NCBI RefSeq assembly: GCF_022347685.1
Contig: NZ_JAKRGF010000001.1
Span: 62,001-126,000 of the forward strand
DNA: 64,000 nucleotides
From: Thalassobius sp. Cn5-15
Lineage (GTDB): Bacteria > Pseudomonadota > Alphaproteobacteria > Rhodobacterales > Rhodobacteraceae
Direction: 5' to 3'
The position numbers and the translations under genes were made by a program. Shown in pieces: positions 36,263-42,938 of this stretch. Each line of letters opens with the position of its first letter. The first letter of the stretch is position 1. The notes beneath the pieces were generated by a model. The model saw only the letters and a list, made by a program, of their open reading frames with translations, made no database searches and was not told the origin of the DNA.

Positions 36263-36338
<76 letters not shown>

Positions 36339-36434: not shown

Positions 36435-37898
36435 TCAGTCTTGTGTGTGCCCTGATGTAGTGGCCTGTAAATTTTTCGCGTCCAAAGTGACCGTGCGATC
36501 TGCCAATCGGGCCAGCAACCCCTGATCATGGCTGACCACCAGCAGGGCTGCGCCGTGATCGGCGGCCTGTCGCAGCAGCGTGCTGACATGCTGGATTGAA
36601 GGGCTGTCCAGCGCACTGGTGGGTTCGTCGGCGACGATCAAGGCGGGTCGGGTGATGGTGGCGCGGGCAATGGCGACGCGCTGGCATTGACCAAGTGATA
36701 ATTCCGCAGGACGGGCATGGGGGTCTACCAGCTCCAGTCCAACCGACTGCATCGCTTCTGCCGCGCGGGCTTTTAGTTGCTGTTTACTCAGCCTTGGCTG
36801 GCCGCGGGCGGTGAGCGGTTCACTGATGGACCGCCAGATCGGCCAATGGGGCACCAGACTGGCAAGTGGGCCCTGAAAGACCGGTAGAATGGCGCCGGGG
36901 CGCTGCAGAATAGGATCCCGCCAGATGGTGCCGGTGCTGGGGGTCTCCAACCCCATGACCAGTCGTAGCAAGGTGGATTTTCCCGACCCTGACGGGCCTT
37001 GCAGTCCGACAATTTCGCCTGCGCCGATGCTGAGGTTTGTTGCCGGTAACGCCTGAATGCGACCACGTTTGTAGCTGACACCTGCGGCCTCCAGCCGGAT
37101 CAACGGTGAGGGGGAGGTGGCTTTGCGGCGGGGGGGCAACGGAGCGAGGGCCGCGAGCAATCGCTTGGTCGCCGGATGGCGGGGGCGGCTGCGCAGGTCT
37201 GATGGCGTGGCGACCTCAACCAGTTCGCCCTGATCCAGCACCCCGATACGATCCGCGTTTCGCAGAACCAGATCTATGTCATGGCTGATCAGTAGGATGG
37301 CCGACCCGGCGCTTTTTAGCGCCTGAATCACCGATTGGGCGCGGTCTGCATCCAATGCGCTGGTAGGTTCATCGGCAACCAGAATAGGCGGTGTGAGCGC
37401 AGTTGCGGCGCTGATTGCGGCGCGTTGCAGCATGCCACCGCTCCAGGTGTGGGGAGGGGCATGGATCCGCACGGCCGCCTCCGGCACGCCAAGGCGGTCA
37501 AGCCGCGCGACAATCTCTGCCCAACGGACGGGCAGGCCGTGGCAGCGCCAGGCTTCGGCTACATGATCTCCTACGGGGCGCAGGGGATCGCAGCTGACCC
37601 AAGGATTCTGCGCCACAAACCCGATCTTGTGACCGCGTATGCGGCGCCAATCCGCCTTGCTGGCTTGTGCCATATCGACGCCATCCAGTTGCAGGCTGCC
37701 GCCAATTCTGCTGCCTCCGCCGTGCAGTCCCAGAAGGGCACGGGCGATGGTGGATTTTCCGGTGCCAGAGCCGCCCAAAAGTGCAAAGCATTCTCCCGCG
37801 GCTACCGAAAAGCTGACGTTGCGCACCGGCATGCTGCCGTTGGGATAGCGAACCGAAAGCCCGCTGCACGACAGGGCGGGTTTTGCGAGCGATGTCAT
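36435..37898 (-). CDS. Fused double ATPase of an Opp/Nik-type ABC importer
   Basis: A 487-residue protein joining two complete ABC ATPase domains that are separate proteins (DppD/DppF, NikD/NikE) in most systems. Domain 1 has Walker A GGSGTGKST, signature WSGGMLQR and Walker B ILVADEPTSALD. Domain 2 (from about residue 255) has Walker A GPSGSGKST, a signature-region LSLGQCQR (Gly-Gln instead of Gly-Gly) and LIVADEPTSALD. It is the last gene of the riboswitch-headed cluster; its ATG overlaps the permease stop codon. It should energise the two permeases at the inner membrane. Confidence 0.92.
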   Translation of the reverse strand: MTSLAKPALSCSGLSVRYPNGSMPVRNVSFSVAAGECFALLGGSGTGKSTIARALLGLHGGGSRIGGSLQLDGVDMAQASKADWRRIRGHKIGFVAQNPWVSCDPLRPVGDHVAEAWRCHGLPVRWAEIVARLDRLGVPEAAVRIHAPPHTWSGGMLQRAAISAATALTPPILVADEPTSALDADRAQSVIQALKSAGSAILLISHDIDLVLRNADRIGVLDQGELVEVATPSDLRSRPRHPATKRLLAALAPLPPRRKATSPSPLIRLEAAGVSYKRGRIQALPATNLSIGAGEIVGLQGPSGSGKSTLLRLVMGLETPSTGTIWRDPILQRPGAILPVFQGPLASLVPHWPIWRSISEPLTARGQPRLSKQQLKARAAEAMQSVGLELVDPHARPAELSLGQCQRVAIARATITRPALIVADEPTSALDSPSIQHVSTLLRQAADHGAALLVVSHDQGLLARLADRTVTLDAKNLQATTSGHTQD

Positions 37899-38779
37899 GA
37901 CTGTTCGTCCTTTGCGCCTGCGACGTCGCGCAGGGCATTGCCGATCAGGTTGGCGCTCAACACAGACAGGAAGATCAAGCCCGCCGGCGCGATGAGCAGC
38001 CAGAGTGCCACGGTAAAGTATAGCCGTGCCTCAGATAGCATAGCCCCCCATTCCGCGTGTGGCGGCTGTACCCCCAGTCCAAGAAAAGAAAACCCAGAGA
38101 TCGCGCCGATCATCCCGCCAAGCGCCAGACTGGCAACAATGCCCAGCTGCAGGGCCACATCCGGCAGAATATGGCCGCAAATGATACGCCAGTTCGGCAC
38201 ACCGGCAAGGCGGGCGGCGATCACATGTGGCTGATGGCGCGCGTTCAGCGAAAGCGATCGCGCGAGCCGTGCATACCACGCCCAATCGGCGATGATCAGC
38301 GCCAGCAGCAGATTCAGGAAACCCGGCCCCAGAATGCCTAAAACGGCAAAGGCCAGCACCAGTCCCGGCAGGGTCATCGCGATATCGGCGGTGCGCATCA
38401 GCACGGTGTCAACAACGCCGCCCAGCAGCCCGGCGGTGGTGCCGATGAGCAGCCCGATCACAAACACCGCCGCCAGGACCAGTGTCGCCGCGCCCAGTGA
38501 TCTGTGGGCGGCGTCCAGACTGCGGCTGAACATATCGCGCCCCGTTGCATCGGTGCCAAAGGGATGGGCCAACTGTGGTGGTTTCAGCGCGTTGATGTAG
38601 TTTGGCTGGTTGGGATCCGCTGGAGTCCAGACCGCGCCGACCATCGCAAAGAGGCACAGCGCAAGGCCAAGGATCAGCCCCAGCCGCCCACTGCGGTGGT
38701 GCCACAGTTTCGCCAGCAGGCGCCGCGGCACTTGGCGGGGCAGGGGGGCGGGGCGGGTTAAGGTGAACGAGGTGGTCAT
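37895..38779 (-). CDS. ABC permease, DppC/NikC type
   Basis: A 294-residue inner-membrane subunit with about six helices. The first helix (about residues 35-50) is followed by FGTDATGRDMFSRSLDAAHRSL, diagnostic for the DppC/NikC group. The coupling EAA loop reads AARLAGVPNWRIICGHILPDVALQL. Its start and stop both overlap neighbours by 4 bases (ATGA), so the three distal genes are translationally coupled. Confidence 0.92.
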   Translation of the reverse strand: MTTSFTLTRPAPLPRQVPRRLLAKLWHHRSGRLGLILGLALCLFAMVGAVWTPADPNQPNYINALKPPQLAHPFGTDATGRDMFSRSLDAAHRSLGAATLVLAAVFVIGLLIGTTAGLLGGVVDTVLMRTADIAMTLPGLVLAFAVLGILGPGFLNLLLALIIADWAWYARLARSLSLNARHQPHVIAARLAGVPNWRIICGHILPDVALQLGIVASLALGGMIGAISGFSFLGLGVQPPHAEWGAMLSEARLYFTVALWLLIAPAGLIFLSVLSANLIGNALRDVAGAKDEQS

Positions 38780-39711
38780 TTCGATGGGTCCCTCAATCGC
38801 GGGTCCAGCAGGATGGCCGCCAGATCAACCAGTAGGGCGGCGGCCACATATGACAGGGCTGCGATCAGCACATAGGCCTGAATCACTGGATAGTTGCGGG
38901 CTGAGAGTGCTTCGAGAACGTAGGCACCAAGGCCCGGCCAGGTAAAAATCGCTTCGATCAACGGGGCGCCGCCAATCAGCGCGCCGATGCTGACGCCAAT
39001 GGCAGTCAGAAAGGGGAGGATCGCATTGGGCAGCGCATGGCGCAGCAGGATGCGCCCTTCTGATGCACCACGGGTGCGGGCCACGTCGGCATAGCCGCTG
39101 GCCATCGCCTGCAGCAGACCTGCGCGCAACAGTTGCGTCCAGCTGGCGGCACGGTCCAGCCCGATGATAAAGGCAGGGATCAGCGCCGCCTGCCATGTCA
39201 CATCTGCCAGAACCTGCCCCATCTGAAAGCCGACAATCAGAAAAGTCAGGGCCAGTAGCGCAAACACAAAGGTTGGGAAGGCCGCACCGATCTGGGTGTA
39301 GATGCGGATCAGGTGATCCGGCCAGCGATCACGAAATCCGGCGGCGATCAGTGCAAAGCTTAGCGAAAACACAATCGAAAACCCCAGCGCCAATCCCAGT
39401 AGGATCAGCGTTGCGGGCAAACGTTCCAAAATTTCCTGTGTGACAGAGGCCTGACTGGTAAAGCTGAGGCCGAAGTCGCCCTGCATTACATTGCCAAGCC
39501 AGTTGATAAACTGCACCGGCATCGGATCATAAAGGCCCAGTTCCACCCGGGTGGCCTCAATCTCGGCCGGCGTGGGCGTTTCGACGCCCCGCGCCAACAG
39601 AACGCGGTTCGCAGGATCGCCCGGTGCAAGTGGCAACAGGGCAAAGACGATGACACAGGCCGCCAGTGCGGTCAGCGCAGCCTGTCCCAGCCGTATCAAC
39701 GCGGCGAACAT
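38776..39711 (-). CDS. ABC permease, DppB/NikB type
   Basis: A 311-residue partner permease. Seen: LPLAPGDPANRVLLARG, the EAA loop DVARTRGASEGRILLRHALPNAI, and GGAPLIEAIFTWPGLGAYVLEAL near the C-terminus. The ATG at 39711 starts at a normal first helix (FAALIRLGQAALTALAACVI); the longer frame to 40080 reads through the binding-protein gene in another frame. It begins 35 bases after the binding protein. Confidence 0.92.
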   Translation of the reverse strand: MFAALIRLGQAALTALAACVIVFALLPLAPGDPANRVLLARGVETPTPAEIEATRVELGLYDPMPVQFINWLGNVMQGDFGLSFTSQASVTQEILERLPATLILLGLALGFSIVFSLSFALIAAGFRDRWPDHLIRIYTQIGAAFPTFVFALLALTFLIVGFQMGQVLADVTWQAALIPAFIIGLDRAASWTQLLRAGLLQAMASGYADVARTRGASEGRILLRHALPNAILPFLTAIGVSIGALIGGAPLIEAIFTWPGLGAYVLEALSARNYPVIQAYVLIAALSYVAAALLVDLAAILLDPRLRDPSK

Positions 39712-39746
39712 CAGTCCGCCGCGCCGTTTTATTTGATCAGAACTGA

Positions 39747-41288
39747 TCACTTGTTCGGGGCCGTGTCCCATTTGATGTGGTTCCAGGCCACAGCGGGGAC
39801 GTAGTTGGACCATGCGTCGCTGACCAGCGCACGTTCTTTCAGGATGGTCAGGTTGAAGATGTAGGGATCGTCTTCGGCCACGATCATCTGGATTTTGCGC
39901 AGCATCTCGTTGCGGGCCTCTTCGTCCACGGTGACGTCCAGTTTTTCGATCAGCGCCTGCGCCTCTGCGTTGCAGTAGCCGCCGTAGTTGCGATCCCCCC
40001 CACAGGCCACATAGCGGTTCAGGAAACCACTGACCGATCCGACGGTGGCGGTGCCGGTGGCCGACAGGGCAATGTCCCATTCCACCAGATCGTTCATCGC
40101 CGCCTCACGTACACTGTCGACGGATACCACTTCGGAAGCGATGCCAACTGCGGATAGATAGGTCTGCATCGCGCTGGACAGCGGCGCCAAATCGGGCTGC
40201 TGCGGATAGATCATGATGGTGACCGAAAGGGTTTCACCGTCCTTGGTACGGGTGTCGCCCGATCGGACCCAACCAGCATCGTCCAGCAGCGTGTTCGCGG
40301 CGGCCATATCATATTTGTAGTTCTTCAGCGCGTAGGCGAAGTTGGGGTTATAAAGGCCGGTCGCCGGTGCCTTGGCGCCATGAAAGACGGAATTGGCAAT
40401 CTCTTCATAGTTCATCGCCAGCATGGCTGCGCGGCGTACTGCTTTTTCCTCAAACGTCCCGTTGGTCACATCCATAAAGCCGACAAAACCACCGGTGGAC
40501 AGCGGTCCCAGTGCCAGATTGAGGTTCGGCGTTGCTTTGAACACTGGCGCGGCGGCGATGGGCGGGTAAAGGGCAATGTCCACCTCACCGTTCTGCACCG
40601 CGAGGATGCGGGCATTGGCGTCAGAGACAAAGCGCAGCTCAACCCCTTCCATCACCGGTTTACCCTGCCAGTAGTCCTCATAGCGTTCGGCGATCATTTT
40701 CTGATCGTCGAGGCTGATCAGTTTGAACGGACCGGTGTGAATGCCCGCGCCTTCCAGTTTCTCAAAGTCATCGCCCGCGGCCAGAACCGTTTCGACGTCG
40801 ATGATCATCAGGCGGCTTTCATGGGCCAGAATGTTGGGCAGTTCGGGGGTTGGAACGCCGGTGTTCACGGTGATCTCACGCGGGCCAGTCTTTTCAAACG
40901 TGGCCTCGGCTGGCACCACCGCCTGTGTGCCAGAGCTGTTTTCGCGGAAATAGGCGATGGAGGCCAGCACCGCGTCCACATCCATCGCTTTGCCGTTCTG
41001 GAAGGTGACGCCATCGCGGATGGTGATCACCCAGGTGGTGTCATCTTTGCGGGTCAGACTCTCGGCCAGCCAGGGCGTGATGTCGCCGTTGGGCTGGAAT
41101 TTCATCAGCAATTCACCTTGACCAAATTCCTGCATCCAGAAACCTTGCTTGACCGGATCCATGCTGCGGATCTGAAAGCTGGTGGCCATGTTGATGATCT
41201 TGTCCTCTGCCAATGCAGGGGCGGCGGTCAGGGCAGGCAGTGCGGCCATTACCAGAGCGCTGGACAGCATCAGTGATTTCAATGTCAT
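39747..41288 (-). CDS. ABC importer substrate-binding protein (SBP_bac_5 family)
   Basis: A 513-residue periplasmic receptor with a Sec signal (ALPALTAAPALAED, about residues 1-27). The family text is clear: ATSFQIRSMDPVK, WLAESLTRKDDTTWVITIRDGVTFQNGKAMD, VRRAAMLAMNYEEI, and AANTLLDDAGW. This family binds peptides, nickel, heme or metal-chelator complexes. The B12 riboswitch upstream favours cobalt or a cobalt chelate here. AAGGAG precedes its ATG, which overlaps the upstream gene's stop codon (ATGA). Confidence 0.9.
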   Translation of the reverse strand: MTLKSLMLSSALVMAALPALTAAPALAEDKIINMATSFQIRSMDPVKQGFWMQEFGQGELLMKFQPNGDITPWLAESLTRKDDTTWVITIRDGVTFQNGKAMDVDAVLASIAYFRENSSGTQAVVPAEATFEKTGPREITVNTGVPTPELPNILAHESRLMIIDVETVLAAGDDFEKLEGAGIHTGPFKLISLDDQKMIAERYEDYWQGKPVMEGVELRFVSDANARILAVQNGEVDIALYPPIAAAPVFKATPNLNLALGPLSTGGFVGFMDVTNGTFEEKAVRRAAMLAMNYEEIANSVFHGAKAPATGLYNPNFAYALKNYKYDMAAANTLLDDAGWVRSGDTRTKDGETLSVTIMIYPQQPDLAPLSSAMQTYLSAVGIASEVVSVDSVREAAMNDLVEWDIALSATGTATVGSVSGFLNRYVACGGDRNYGGYCNAEAQALIEKLDVTVDEEARNEMLRKIQMIVAEDDPYIFNLTILKERALVSDAWSNYVPAVAWNHIKWDTAPNK

Positions 41289-42148
41289 ACGAGTAACTCC
41301 TTTTGGGATTTGGGTATTTGAGGGGAAGGGGCGTGGTCTGAAACGGTGTTTTCTGTTGCGGTCTCTGCTGCGTCGCGCACGGCGCGCGCGGTGTGAAAAC
41401 GCAGGTCATCGGCGCTGCCGCCTGCAACCAGCACTTCACGGACAAAGCGGCGAGTGGCGGCCACGTCAGGCAAGCGGTACCAATGCCCTTGCGGGTATAG
41501 CGCCAGCACGGGACCTTTGTTGCAGGGGTAAATGCAGCCGGTGCGGGTGGTCAGGCAACGGTCCGAAACACCTGCCGCGACCAGTTCCTCTTTCAGCATA
41601 TGGGTGAAAGAGGCGGCGCCGTGAACCGCGCAGCGCGGGCCAGTGCAGACCAGCAGATGAAAATCGAAGTCCGGCGGCATGTTCCAGCCGGGTTTGCCCA
41701 GTCGTGGCTTAACCGTTGCGATCGGTTTTGCTGTGTCTGGCTGGGCCAGCAGGCTGGCGGCATGGGCCATCAGGGCGGCGGGATCGCGGGCAGGGTCGGG
41801 CCCCATGGCCAGATGGGTGTCTGCGTTTTCGCCCCGCGTGCGCCAATCCGCCAGGACGCCGGGGATCCATGTCAGCAGGCTTTCAGGGAAGGGATAGCCA
41901 AAGGGCTGCACCTTGATCCGGCGATGCCCTTCGGCACGCATCTCATCAAGCGCGTTGATCAGGCTGGGTCCTGTTTCTTCCAGCCGGATCAGTCGCGTCG
42001 GCTGTGAGGTTGCGGCGGCCACCGCGTCCTGCATGCGTGTCAGCGCACCCTTGCTGAGCGTATAGGCCGAAACAACAAACAGGACCGCCCCGGCGGCGGA
42101 TGTGTCTGCGGTGTCTATCTGGTGTGTTTGGGTGTCATCTGTCTGCAT
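41285..42148 (-). CDS. CbiX-like domain fused to a thioredoxin-like [2Fe-2S] ferredoxin domain
   Basis: A 287-residue cytoplasmic fusion. Residues about 20-135 resemble one CbiX/SirB chelatase half (AVLFVVSAYTLSKGAL; RRIKVQPFGYPFPESL), but the usual N-terminal HGS metal-binding motif is replaced by VSAYT, so chelatase activity is doubtful. Residues about 162-243 are a thioredoxin-like ferredoxin with Cys168, Cys173, Cys198, Cys205 and Cys209 (LVCTGPRCAVHGA; CIYPCNKGP). GGAGGGG lies just before the ATG. As first gene under a cobalamin riboswitch, it may handle imported cobalt or pass electrons to corrin chemistry (inference). DUF1636-type metal-binding proteins are an alternative assignment for the C-terminal domain. 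Confidence 0.75.
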   Translation of the reverse strand: MQTDDTQTHQIDTADTSAAGAVLFVVSAYTLSKGALTRMQDAVAAATSQPTRLIRLEETGPSLINALDEMRAEGHRRIKVQPFGYPFPESLLTWIPGVLADWRTRGENADTHLAMGPDPARDPAALMAHAASLLAQPDTAKPIATVKPRLGKPGWNMPPDFDFHLLVCTGPRCAVHGAASFTHMLKEELVAAGVSDRCLTTRTGCIYPCNKGPVLALYPQGHWYRLPDVAATRRFVREVLVAGGSADDLRFHTARAVRDAAETATENTVSDHAPSPQIPKSQKELLV

Positions 42149-42156
42149 CGTCCCCT

Positions 42157-42174
42157 CCGCACTAACGCGTGCGG
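42157..42174 (-). promoter_or_regulatory. Hairpin abutting the ribosome binding site of the CbiX-like gene
   Basis: CCGCAC (42157-42162) pairs with GTGCGG (42169-42174); on the minus strand the last stem bases run into the GGAGGGG ribosome binding site. A candidate expression platform for the riboswitch, acting on translation. Confidence 0.5.
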
Positions 42175-42341
42175 GTGTGCAGGAACGGTCATGTTACAGG
42201 CCAGCCCTAAGACTGTTTCACAAACTGGATCACAGATTGCACTATGGGTCTCACATAGGGACCTTGCCAGTATTACCATCATCATTTCCCCCCGGAACAC
42301 CCCGCCCGGATCAGTTTCAACATCAGCGCTGAAGCGCCTTT

Positions 42342-42530
42342 GATGGCAGGTCTCCTGACTTGCGGGTCAACATGGATCTGCGCCTTCCCGGATCAGTTGA
42401 TCCAGTGGCCTCTGGCAGTCCACTACCGCTTACAGTTGCGGGGGCAGTCACGGAATTGGCGCCTCTAGGCTTTTCCTCACCGTGTTCCCTATTAAGCCTC
42501 AGAGAATGCAGATCCCTAAGGCACCATCTG
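42342..42530 (-). promoter_or_regulatory. Cobalamin (B12) riboswitch
   Basis: On the minus strand the conserved cobalamin aptamer blocks appear in order: GGTGCC at the 5' end, GGGATCTGC pairing with GCAGATCC, GGGAACACGGTGAGGAAAAG then CC, TGCCCCCGCAACTGTAAGCG, GCCACTGG, CGGGAAGGCG, and the B12 box AGTCAGGAGACCTGCC at 42345-42360. This is a nearly textbook aptamer. It lies about 190 bases upstream of the CbiX-like gene and should lower expression of the whole ABC cluster when coenzyme B12 is plentiful. Confidence 0.95.
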
Positions 42531-42862
42531 GGGCTGTGTTTGCAGAAAGTAGAATTAAACCGCAAGTGTTTTTTGTCATGTGTACATTGGGCATGACAGT
42601 GGTGCGCCGCGTTTCAGCCCGGATCCGGCGGTGTGGTTGGTTGTGTGCTCAGGCAGGCGAAACCGTTCTCCCGACCGATGTTCAGTGGTGTCTTGGTCCA
42701 GGCTAAGGCATTGGAAGTATGATCAAAACGGGCGGCTGTTTTTGTGATCTATGTAGTGTAACATCCGGAAACTGGGGCAAAAACCTACGGACTCATTTTT
42801 TGTCACGAAAATGCAAAACACCTCTTGCACCTCTCATGGGCATTATATAAACTCCGCCTCAC
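42531..42862. other. Region between riboswitch and tRNA-Val, no gene recognised
   Basis: About 330 bases that should hold the leftward promoter of the riboswitch transcript and the rightward promoter of tRNA-Val. The short open frames have no convincing start and no similarity I can recognise. Confidence 0.5.

Positions 42863-42938
<76 letters not shown>

What the first reader, a model, noticed from the sequence alone, without database searches (positions are those of the whole stretch)
36435..42530. B12-riboswitch-controlled Opp/Nik-type ABC importer led by a CbiX-like/ferredoxin fusion: candidate cobalt uptake system
A clear cobalamin riboswitch heads five tightly packed genes. They encode a degenerate CbiX-like/[2Fe-2S] fusion, a dipeptide/nickel-type binding protein, two permeases and a fused double ATPase. 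Four of the junctions overlap or nearly touch. B12 riboswitches normally control cobalamin synthesis, B12 uptake or cobalt transport. Opp-fold importers carry peptides, nickel and chelated metals, so cobalt or a cobalt chelate is the best guess. The combination with a soluble chelatase-like redox protein suggests import followed by metal hand-off. I am not aware of a biochemical description of this arrangement.
Basis: partly seen in the sequence, partly recalled or inferred. Interest (0 to 1): 0.78.

Follow-up and report, generated by a model that had tools for sequence, protein, structure and literature searches.

The report
B12-controlled importer with redox chelatase-like partner
A vitamin B12-sensing RNA switch controls a five-gene import system, probably for cobalt, whose first gene makes an unstudied protein that many other bacteria pair with a quite different importer under the same switch.

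Summary
Observation confirmed. A strong cobalamin riboswitch (RF00174, 135.8 bits) precedes a CbiX-like/[2Fe-2S] fusion, a family-5 binding protein, two permeases and a double ATPase. A confident model shows the fusion is a CbiX/CfbA-type fold without the catalytic histidines plus a thioredoxin-like [2Fe-2S] ferredoxin with all four cysteines (40 of 40 sequences).

The arrangement recurs. Of 52 alphaproteobacterial loci, 50 have the riboswitch ahead of the fusion; its partner is an Opp/Nik-type importer in 18 and an unrelated BtuFCD/CbtJKL-type importer in 34. A tree of 82 fusions needs three partner changes, two forced by well-supported branches. In 394 family genomes the window's binding protein has close orthologues (1e-110) in five, all with the fusion.

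Best reading: the fusion is the constant cytosolic part of a cobalt-acquisition module that exchanges importers; it may reduce or strip the imported cobalt complex. Cobalt versus corrinoid is unsettled. A short upstream ORF overlapping the fusion start probably relays the switch. B12-riboswitch control of Nik-family importers is published; I found nothing in print on the fusion, in a partial library.

The parts
42328..42543 (-). Cobalamin riboswitch aptamer (RF00174)
   Evidence: cmscan 135.8 bits, cut-off 31.5, E 4.8e-34; same in the whole-genome search
42291..42308 (-). Putative L13 hairpin; GCGGGG (42304-42299) is complementary to CCCCGC in aptamer loop L5 (42443-42438); a purine-rich ribosome-binding sequence follows
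   Evidence: sequence complementarity; motif conserved in the window and 5 close Opp-type loci; the hairpin is NOT favoured when this window segment is folded alone (z +1.65)
42115..42285 (-). Short upstream ORF, 56 aa, out of frame with the fusion and overlapping its start by 34 nt; proposed translational relay
   Evidence: same geometry in 35 of 47 evaluable loci against 2 and 8 of 47 in the other two frames (the distance window was set after a first look)
41285..42148 (-). Fusion, 287 aa: degenerate CbiX/CfbA-type chelatase domain (about 20-135) plus thioredoxin-like [2Fe-2S] ferredoxin domain (about 160-255)
39747..41288 (-). Binding protein, SBP_bac_5 (513 aa; N-terminus reads like a signal peptide)
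   Evidence: Pfam SBP_bac_5 3.8e-63; nearest NCBIfam Opp5A_nikA 256.5 bits, under its cut-off of 600
38776..39711 (-). Permease, OppB/NikB type (ATG at 39711)
37895..38779 (-). Permease, OppC/NikC type
36435..37898 (-). Fused double ABC ATPase (NikD/NikE-like)
   Evidence: two ABC_tran stretches; NikD 263.1 and NikE 247.4 bits, both under cut-off
36263..36338 (+). tRNA-Val(tac), flank at the ATPase end
   Evidence: ARAGORN
42863..42938 (+). tRNA-Val(tac), flank at the riboswitch end; the congener G003 has this tandem pair 179 nt apart with nothing between

Best explanation
The cluster is a B12-repressed cobalt-acquisition module. When adenosylcobalamin is scarce, the riboswitch leaves the ribosome-binding site of a short upstream ORF free; translation of that ORF is coupled to the fusion gene and so to the operon. 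The family-5 binding protein captures a small cobalt species, probably chelated, and the two permeases plus double ATPase import it. In the cytosol the fusion, a former sirohydrochlorin-chelatase fold that has lost its catalytic histidines and carries a [2Fe-2S] ferredoxin domain, docks and reduces or strips the imported complex and passes Co(II) towards CobW/CobN. Shown by computation: riboswitch, gene content, predicted fold, loss of histidines, conservation, importer exchange, uORF geometry. Inferred: ligand, direction of the switch, coupling, reduction and hand-off.
For: Riboswitch ahead of the fusion in 50 of 52 alphaproteobacterial loci. The same fusion is partnered there by Opp-type (18) or BtuFCD-type (34) importers. 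A tree of 82 fusions needs three partner changes, two forced by starred branches; the window's 18-row Opp clade lies in a 24-row mixed set (97/89) and a 34-row mixed set (98/94). Actinobacterial fusion-linked permeases group with S. meliloti CbtK, SH-aLRT 97. Close orthologues (1e-110) of the window's binding protein occur in 5 of 394 family genomes, the same five that have the fusion beside this Opp-type importer. In Azospirillum brasilense the fusion lies near cobN, an ExbB-like gene, a TonB-dependent receptor and nikR. The genome carries cobW and cobN behind another of its riboswitches, so it probably makes B12; the full pathway was not checked. No His at either aligned catalytic position, four Cys kept, in 40 of 40 sequences, window included.
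Against: No direct evidence for the ligand. E. coli NikA's proposed nickel-site residues R97, R137, Y402 and H416 are absent in all 8 fusion-linked binding proteins aligned, window included, so NikA's site is not used; the alignment is weak there (21% identity to NikA). The BtuFCD-type partners could equally carry corrinoids. In 12 of 13 Chloroflexota loci no riboswitch lies at the operon start, and one alphaproteobacterial Opp-type locus (L114, Devosia) has none. The genome already has a CbiQ-type ECF cobalt system and a DUF1636-BtuFCD-type system under B12 riboswitches, so this would be a third.
Confidence: 0.58

Rival explanations
1. Corrinoid salvage: both importer types carry corrinoids (cobinamide, incomplete or modified cobamides), and the fusion, whose chelatase fold holds a tetrapyrrole in other proteins, is a corrinoid-binding reductase or upper-ligand-removing protein fed by its ferredoxin domain.
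For: 34 of 52 alphaproteobacterial partners are BtuFCD-type; the N-terminal fold matches CfbA/CbiX, also in entries with a tetrapyrrole bound (6m2e, 8i57); catalytic His lost but fold kept.
Against: No TonB-dependent receptor of the kind a corrinoid would need was recognised beside the Opp-type loci, but the scan looked for relatives of one receptor only and within about 8 kb. The organism has cobN and cobW. S. meliloti CbtJKL, of the same transporter type, is reported to carry Co(II) (PMC7689651, passages).
Confidence: 0.22
2. Nickel or general metal-chelate importer that has come under B12 control; the fusion is an unspecific reductase.
For: Nearest curated families are nickel/oligopeptide systems; the nearest solved chains are annotated nickel-binding proteins.
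Against: The curated nickel cut-offs are missed; NikA site residues absent; B12 control conserved.
Confidence: 0.1
3. The fusion is a reductase for Co(III)- or Fe(III)-siderophore-like complexes in general, a functional counterpart of FhuF (named from recall and a search listing), with cobalt only one of its metals.
For: In two Azospirillum species the fusion lies between BtuF/BtuC-type genes and a gene annotated as TonB-dependent siderophore receptor; the four cluster cysteines are complete.
Against: Regulation is by a B12 riboswitch also in these two loci; metallophore synthesis genes were not looked for systematically.
Confidence: 0.1

Closest known systems
CbtJKL cobalt importer of Sinorhizobium meliloti
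   Same: B12 riboswitch upstream (L056 16247-16476); ABC importer reported to carry Co(II) (PMC7689651, passages). Fusion-linked actinobacterial permeases group with it.
   Different: BtuFCD-type, not Opp-type; no relative of the fusion was found in the 22 kb fetched around it. I assigned cbtJKL to L056 by place, gene types and riboswitch; the record as held carries no annotation.
NikABCDE under a B12 riboswitch (Clostridium tetani, Desulfitobacterium hafniense)
   Same: Same broad importer family, predicted B12 riboswitch, set apart there from the Ni-specific members (PMC2667541, passages).
   Different: Other phylum; the passages I saw mention no fusion protein; the window's proteins miss the nickel cut-offs.
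CbiX/CfbA/SirB class II chelatases
   Same: N-terminal fold.
   Different: Catalytic histidines absent; the genome has two CbiX proteins with them besides.
Haloarchaeal CbiX with a C-terminal ferredoxin-like domain (L062, Halobaculum)
   Same: CbiX plus a tail that matches the fusion's ferredoxin part, in a cobalamin gene cluster.
   Different: Longer, with the catalytic His retained; no importer among the 12 annotated features of the stretch.
M. tuberculosis ppe2 B12 riboswitch with uORF relay
   Same: L5-L13 pairing beside the uORF start, uORF overlapping the next gene (PMC11260477, abstract and passages).
   Different: Different genes and phylum; there the stop/start overlap is 4 nt, in the window 34 nt.

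Membership tests
Cobalamin riboswitch RF00174 | Covariance-model score over the gathering cut-off, full-length aptamer | tested here: met
   135.8 bits against 31.5, positions 1-189 of 189
Cobalamin riboswitch RF00174 | Adenosylcobalamin binding and control of expression | not testable with these tools
   needs in-line probing and reporters
NikABCDE nickel importer | Scores over curated NCBIfam (TIGR) cut-offs | tested here: not met
   NikA 128 against 393, NikB 253.7 against 447, NikC 256.9 against 358.45, NikD 263.1 against 318.7, NikE 247.4 against 332.55
NikABCDE nickel importer | Ni-site residues R97, R137, Y402, H416 of NikA (list from PMC2667541) | tested here: not met
   none kept in the window or 7 relatives; distant alignment
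Opp/Nik-type (family 5) ABC importer | SBP_bac_5, two BPD_transp_1 permeases, two ABC domains | tested here: met
CbiX sirohydrochlorin chelatase | Fold | tested here: met
   Foldseek 8i55 2.2e-4, 3lyh 3.7e-4; hhalign 4.6e-9. Pfam CbiX not reached
CbiX sirohydrochlorin chelatase | Two catalytic histidines | tested here: not met
   aligned positions A28 and S90; no His there in 40 of 40
Thioredoxin-like [2Fe-2S] ferredoxin | Fold and four cluster cysteines | tested here: met
   1f37 3.3e-7; C168, C173, C205, C209 in 40 of 40; Pfam score under its cut-off
CbtJKL-type cobalt importer | BtuFCD-type subunits | tested here: not met
   the window's importer is Opp-type
Cobalt importer in function | Transports cobalt | not testable with these tools
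   needs 57Co uptake or ICP-MS

The most novel reading that the evidence does not exclude
The fusion founds a widespread class of cytosolic cobalt-release proteins: a pseudo-chelatase wired to a ferredoxin that reductively frees cobalt from imported complexes. It is the constant core of the module and has recruited at least two unrelated ABC importer families, with translation relayed from the B12 riboswitch through a coupled uORF.
Probability: 0.38. Interest if true: 0.78.

Novelty: new variant of a known kind. Interest (0 to 1): 0.62.

Why it matters
How cells free imported cobalt and steer it to B12 synthesis is, to my knowledge, poorly understood. A conserved soluble protein that stays with the riboswitch while the importer beside it is exchanged gives a concrete candidate for that step and predicts that two unrelated importers carry the same cargo. 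It also gives a natural series for studying B12 riboswitches that act through a short coupled ORF.

Tried and rejected
Integrative element at the tRNA: rejected. The two flanking tRNA-Val copies look like att repeats, but of the 5 congeners examined (of 8), G003 has the same tandem pair 179 nt apart with no cluster between, G002 and G004 also have a close pair, and G001 and G008 have one tac copy. So the cluster was gained between an existing pair, or lost from the relatives.

A working CbiX chelatase: rejected, catalytic His absent. NikABCDE orthologue: rejected.

The first structure job used a single sequence and was poor (pLDDT 47.6); repeated with a 40-row alignment (87.1). A first regex for riboswitches and a first uORF script missed or misread cases and were replaced by a covariance model and a stricter script. 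Folding the L13 segment of the window alone does not support the hairpin. The promoter scan found none; its three terminator-like sites (0.9 expected) lie inside the fusion gene.

Literature: no paper held all terms for CbiX + ferredoxin domain + riboswitch, DUF1636 + cobalamin, or cobalt uptake + Roseobacter + riboswitch. Wider searches listed no title about such a fusion. I saw passages of five papers and no whole text. The library holds open-licence papers only; the 2003 and 2006 Rodionov papers on B12, nickel and cobalt (recalled, or seen as references) were not read, so prior notice of this gene cannot be excluded.
Full report
Observation. The window carries a full-length cobalamin riboswitch at 42328-42543 on the minus strand (135.8 bits), followed by five co-directional genes. 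Three junctions overlap by 4 nt and one has a gap of about 35 nt. The genome has five such riboswitches. The other four precede a DUF1636 gene with a BtuFCD-type importer, a DUF4198 gene with a CbiQ-containing ECF system, a Rieske oxygenase with a reductase, and cobW with cobN further on.

The first gene. Pfam does not identify its N-terminal domain, and its [2Fe-2S] match is below cut-off. A model built from 40 sequences (window plus 39 relatives, A6) is confident (mean pLDDT 87.1, pTM 0.76). Against solved structures the C-terminal part matches thioredoxin-like [2Fe-2S] ferredoxins (1f37, 3.3e-7) and the N-terminal part CfbA and CbiX chelatases (8i55, 2.2e-4; 3lyh, 3.7e-4; 2dj5 weaker, 3.8e-2). 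Profile comparison with three CbiX proteins gives probability 96%, E 4.6e-9 over 111 columns. The two CbiX catalytic histidines align with A28 and S90; none of the 40 sequences has His at either place, whereas the four cluster cysteines are in 40 of 40. The genome has two CbiX proteins elsewhere with the histidines present.

Recurrence. A scan of genome contigs with six close fusions gave 114 confirmed relatives, of which the tool kept the best 80; the other 34 were not seen. Of the 80, 52 (L108-L159) are alphaproteobacterial. In all 52 a recognised ABC importer adjoins the fusion: Opp-type in 18, BtuFCD-type in 34. A cobalamin riboswitch lies at the operon start in 50 of 52 (16 of 18 and 34 of 34). 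One miss is a contig that starts in the gene (L156); the other (L114, Devosia equisanguinis) has none by Rfam either. These loci are not independent: several species are close kin. The covariance model used for the count was built from 22 riboswitches, most of them from such loci, so it leans towards them. Rfam itself found the riboswitch in all five of L010-L014, in 12 of 14 of L042-L055 (the misses are L045, cut by its contig end, and L054, a ferredoxin-part fragment) and in L058, L059 and L060.

Outside Alphaproteobacteria. Of the other 28 loci, 12 have a riboswitch at the operon start (11 Btu-type, 1 with no importer recognised) and 16 do not; 12 of the 13 Chloroflexota are among the 16. 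Rfam over 19 loci without a recognised upstream riboswitch (those 16, L114, L045, L104) matched only in L166, about 3 kb upstream of its fusion. Three further related alphaproteobacterial loci outside the 52 (L105-L107) have weak model matches (51-52 bits) about 2 kb upstream, in L107 with a receptor-like ORF between.

Partner exchange. A tree of 82 fusions needs three changes of partner type, of which two are forced by well-supported branches; three changes can also mean one gain and two losses. Left out before the tree: 7 of the 80 loci with no importer recognised on the fusion's strand, and 2 with short fragments (L154, L156); 10 plasmid or G-handle rows and the window were added. The window's clade of 18 Opp-type rows (100/99) lies within sets that also hold Btu-type rows (24 rows, 97/89; 34 rows, 98/94). 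Two further, separate Opp-type groups are rhizobial/Paracoccus plasmids (4 rows) and a Chloroflexota/Gracilibacteria pair (2 rows). A quick tree of BtuC-type permeases, with long branches and no bootstrap, puts actinobacterial fusion-linked permeases with S. meliloti CbtK (97) and E. coli BtuC outside that set; the fusion-linked Btu-type permeases are thus of more than one lineage.

Distribution. Among 394 genomes of the window's family, 14 match the fusion profile at 1e-12; two of these (G021, G353) cover essentially the ferredoxin part only. Of the other 12, five have the window-type Opp importer, six the Btu type, and one (G114) a different Opp-type set cut by its contig end. One of them (G245) carries a second fusion at a contig end. 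Close orthologues of the window's binding protein, at 1e-110, occur in 5 of 394: the five Opp-type genomes. Of 385 genomes over the class, 103 match at 1e-15 but only six over most of the fusion's length; the rest are ferredoxin-domain matches. Plasmid neighbourhoods agree: Roseinatronobacter has the same five genes; Neorhizobium, Shinella and Paracoccus aminophilus have fusion, binding protein and two permeases; Azospirillum and Rhodococcus have the fusion with BtuFCD-type genes, in Azospirillum brasilense near cobN, an ExbB-like gene, a TonB-dependent receptor and nikR.

History of the cluster. None of 8 congeners has a match to the fusion at 0.001. In the congener G003 the surrounding genes are in the same order and the two tRNA-Val genes lie 179 nt apart with nothing between; in the window they are 6524 nt apart. 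The simplest reading is gain of the cluster between a pre-existing tandem tRNA pair. The cluster's five genes include no integrase.

Leader. Between aptamer and fusion lies a sequence whose GCGGGG can pair with CCCCGC of aptamer loop L5, followed by a ribosome-binding sequence and an ATG that opens a 56-aa uORF (42285-42115) overlapping the fusion start by 34 nt. Over the window and the 50 loci with a riboswitch, 47 were evaluable (two had no loop motif, two no ATG by the rule). The uORF stop falls within -35 to +15 nt of a fixed codon near the fusion start in 35 of 47 (27 of 31 Btu-type, 8 of 16 Opp-type), against 2 and 8 of 47 for the other two frames from the same ATG. In Btu-type loci the stop is at one of two exact offsets in 27 of 31. 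The pattern was noticed and then counted on the same loci, and the distance window was set after a first look, so the count describes and does not test. The Opp-type misses mostly have a longer leader, in L113 with a small DUF1636-like ORF between and in L128 possibly one (likeness judged by eye). Folding the window's segment alone does not favour the hairpin. The same logic has been shown for ppe2 in M. tuberculosis (PMC11260477), which supports, but does not prove, a relay here.

Interpretation. Constant riboswitch, constant soluble fusion and exchangeable importer point to a shared cargo needed when B12 is short. CbtJKL makes cobalt the best guess (PMC7689651); a corrinoid remains possible. 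Loss of the chelatase histidines with retention of the fold, and a complete [2Fe-2S] domain, suggest binding and electron delivery rather than metal insertion. That step is inference.

Relation to known work. B12-riboswitch control of Nik-family importers was noted for two Firmicutes (PMC2667541, passages). I found no paper on the fusion in the searches listed under Tried and rejected; the library is partial.

Noticed in passing
L008 9463-12112 (G000:C9:762462 onward): A cobalamin riboswitch precedes a Rieske ring-hydroxylase and a ferredoxin reductase gene, with a pterin-binding methyltransferase gene about 6 kb away. It may be B12 control of a B12-independent demethylase (glycine betaine type, recalled) as counterpart of a corrinoid-dependent route.
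   Followed up: partly
L059 1-7143: Beside the Shinella fusion locus two more cobalamin riboswitches precede metE and nrdHIE, genes with B12-dependent counterparts (recalled); an aromatic ring-hydroxylating dioxygenase gene lies just upstream of the metE riboswitch. It looks like a plasmid region for life with little B12.
   Followed up: no
L006 6593-9881: Own genome: riboswitch, DUF1636 protein, BtuFCD-type importer; a second small Cys-containing protein beside an importer, as in L113 7669-7995, where a DUF1636-like ORF (by eye) lies between uORF and fusion.
   Followed up: partly
L013, L014, L058, L059: Rhizobial/Paracoccus fusion loci have binding protein and two permeases but no Opp-type ATPase directly after them; which ATPase serves them is unclear.
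   Followed up: no
L062 5047-6276: Halobaculum CbiX with a C-terminal tail like the fusion's ferredoxin part, in a cobalamin cluster: possibly a relative of the fusion's ancestor.
   Followed up: no
L056 19553-20332 and L059 11976-12674: A methyltransferase gene follows the importer genes both at S. meliloti cbtJKL and at the Shinella fusion locus.
   Followed up: no
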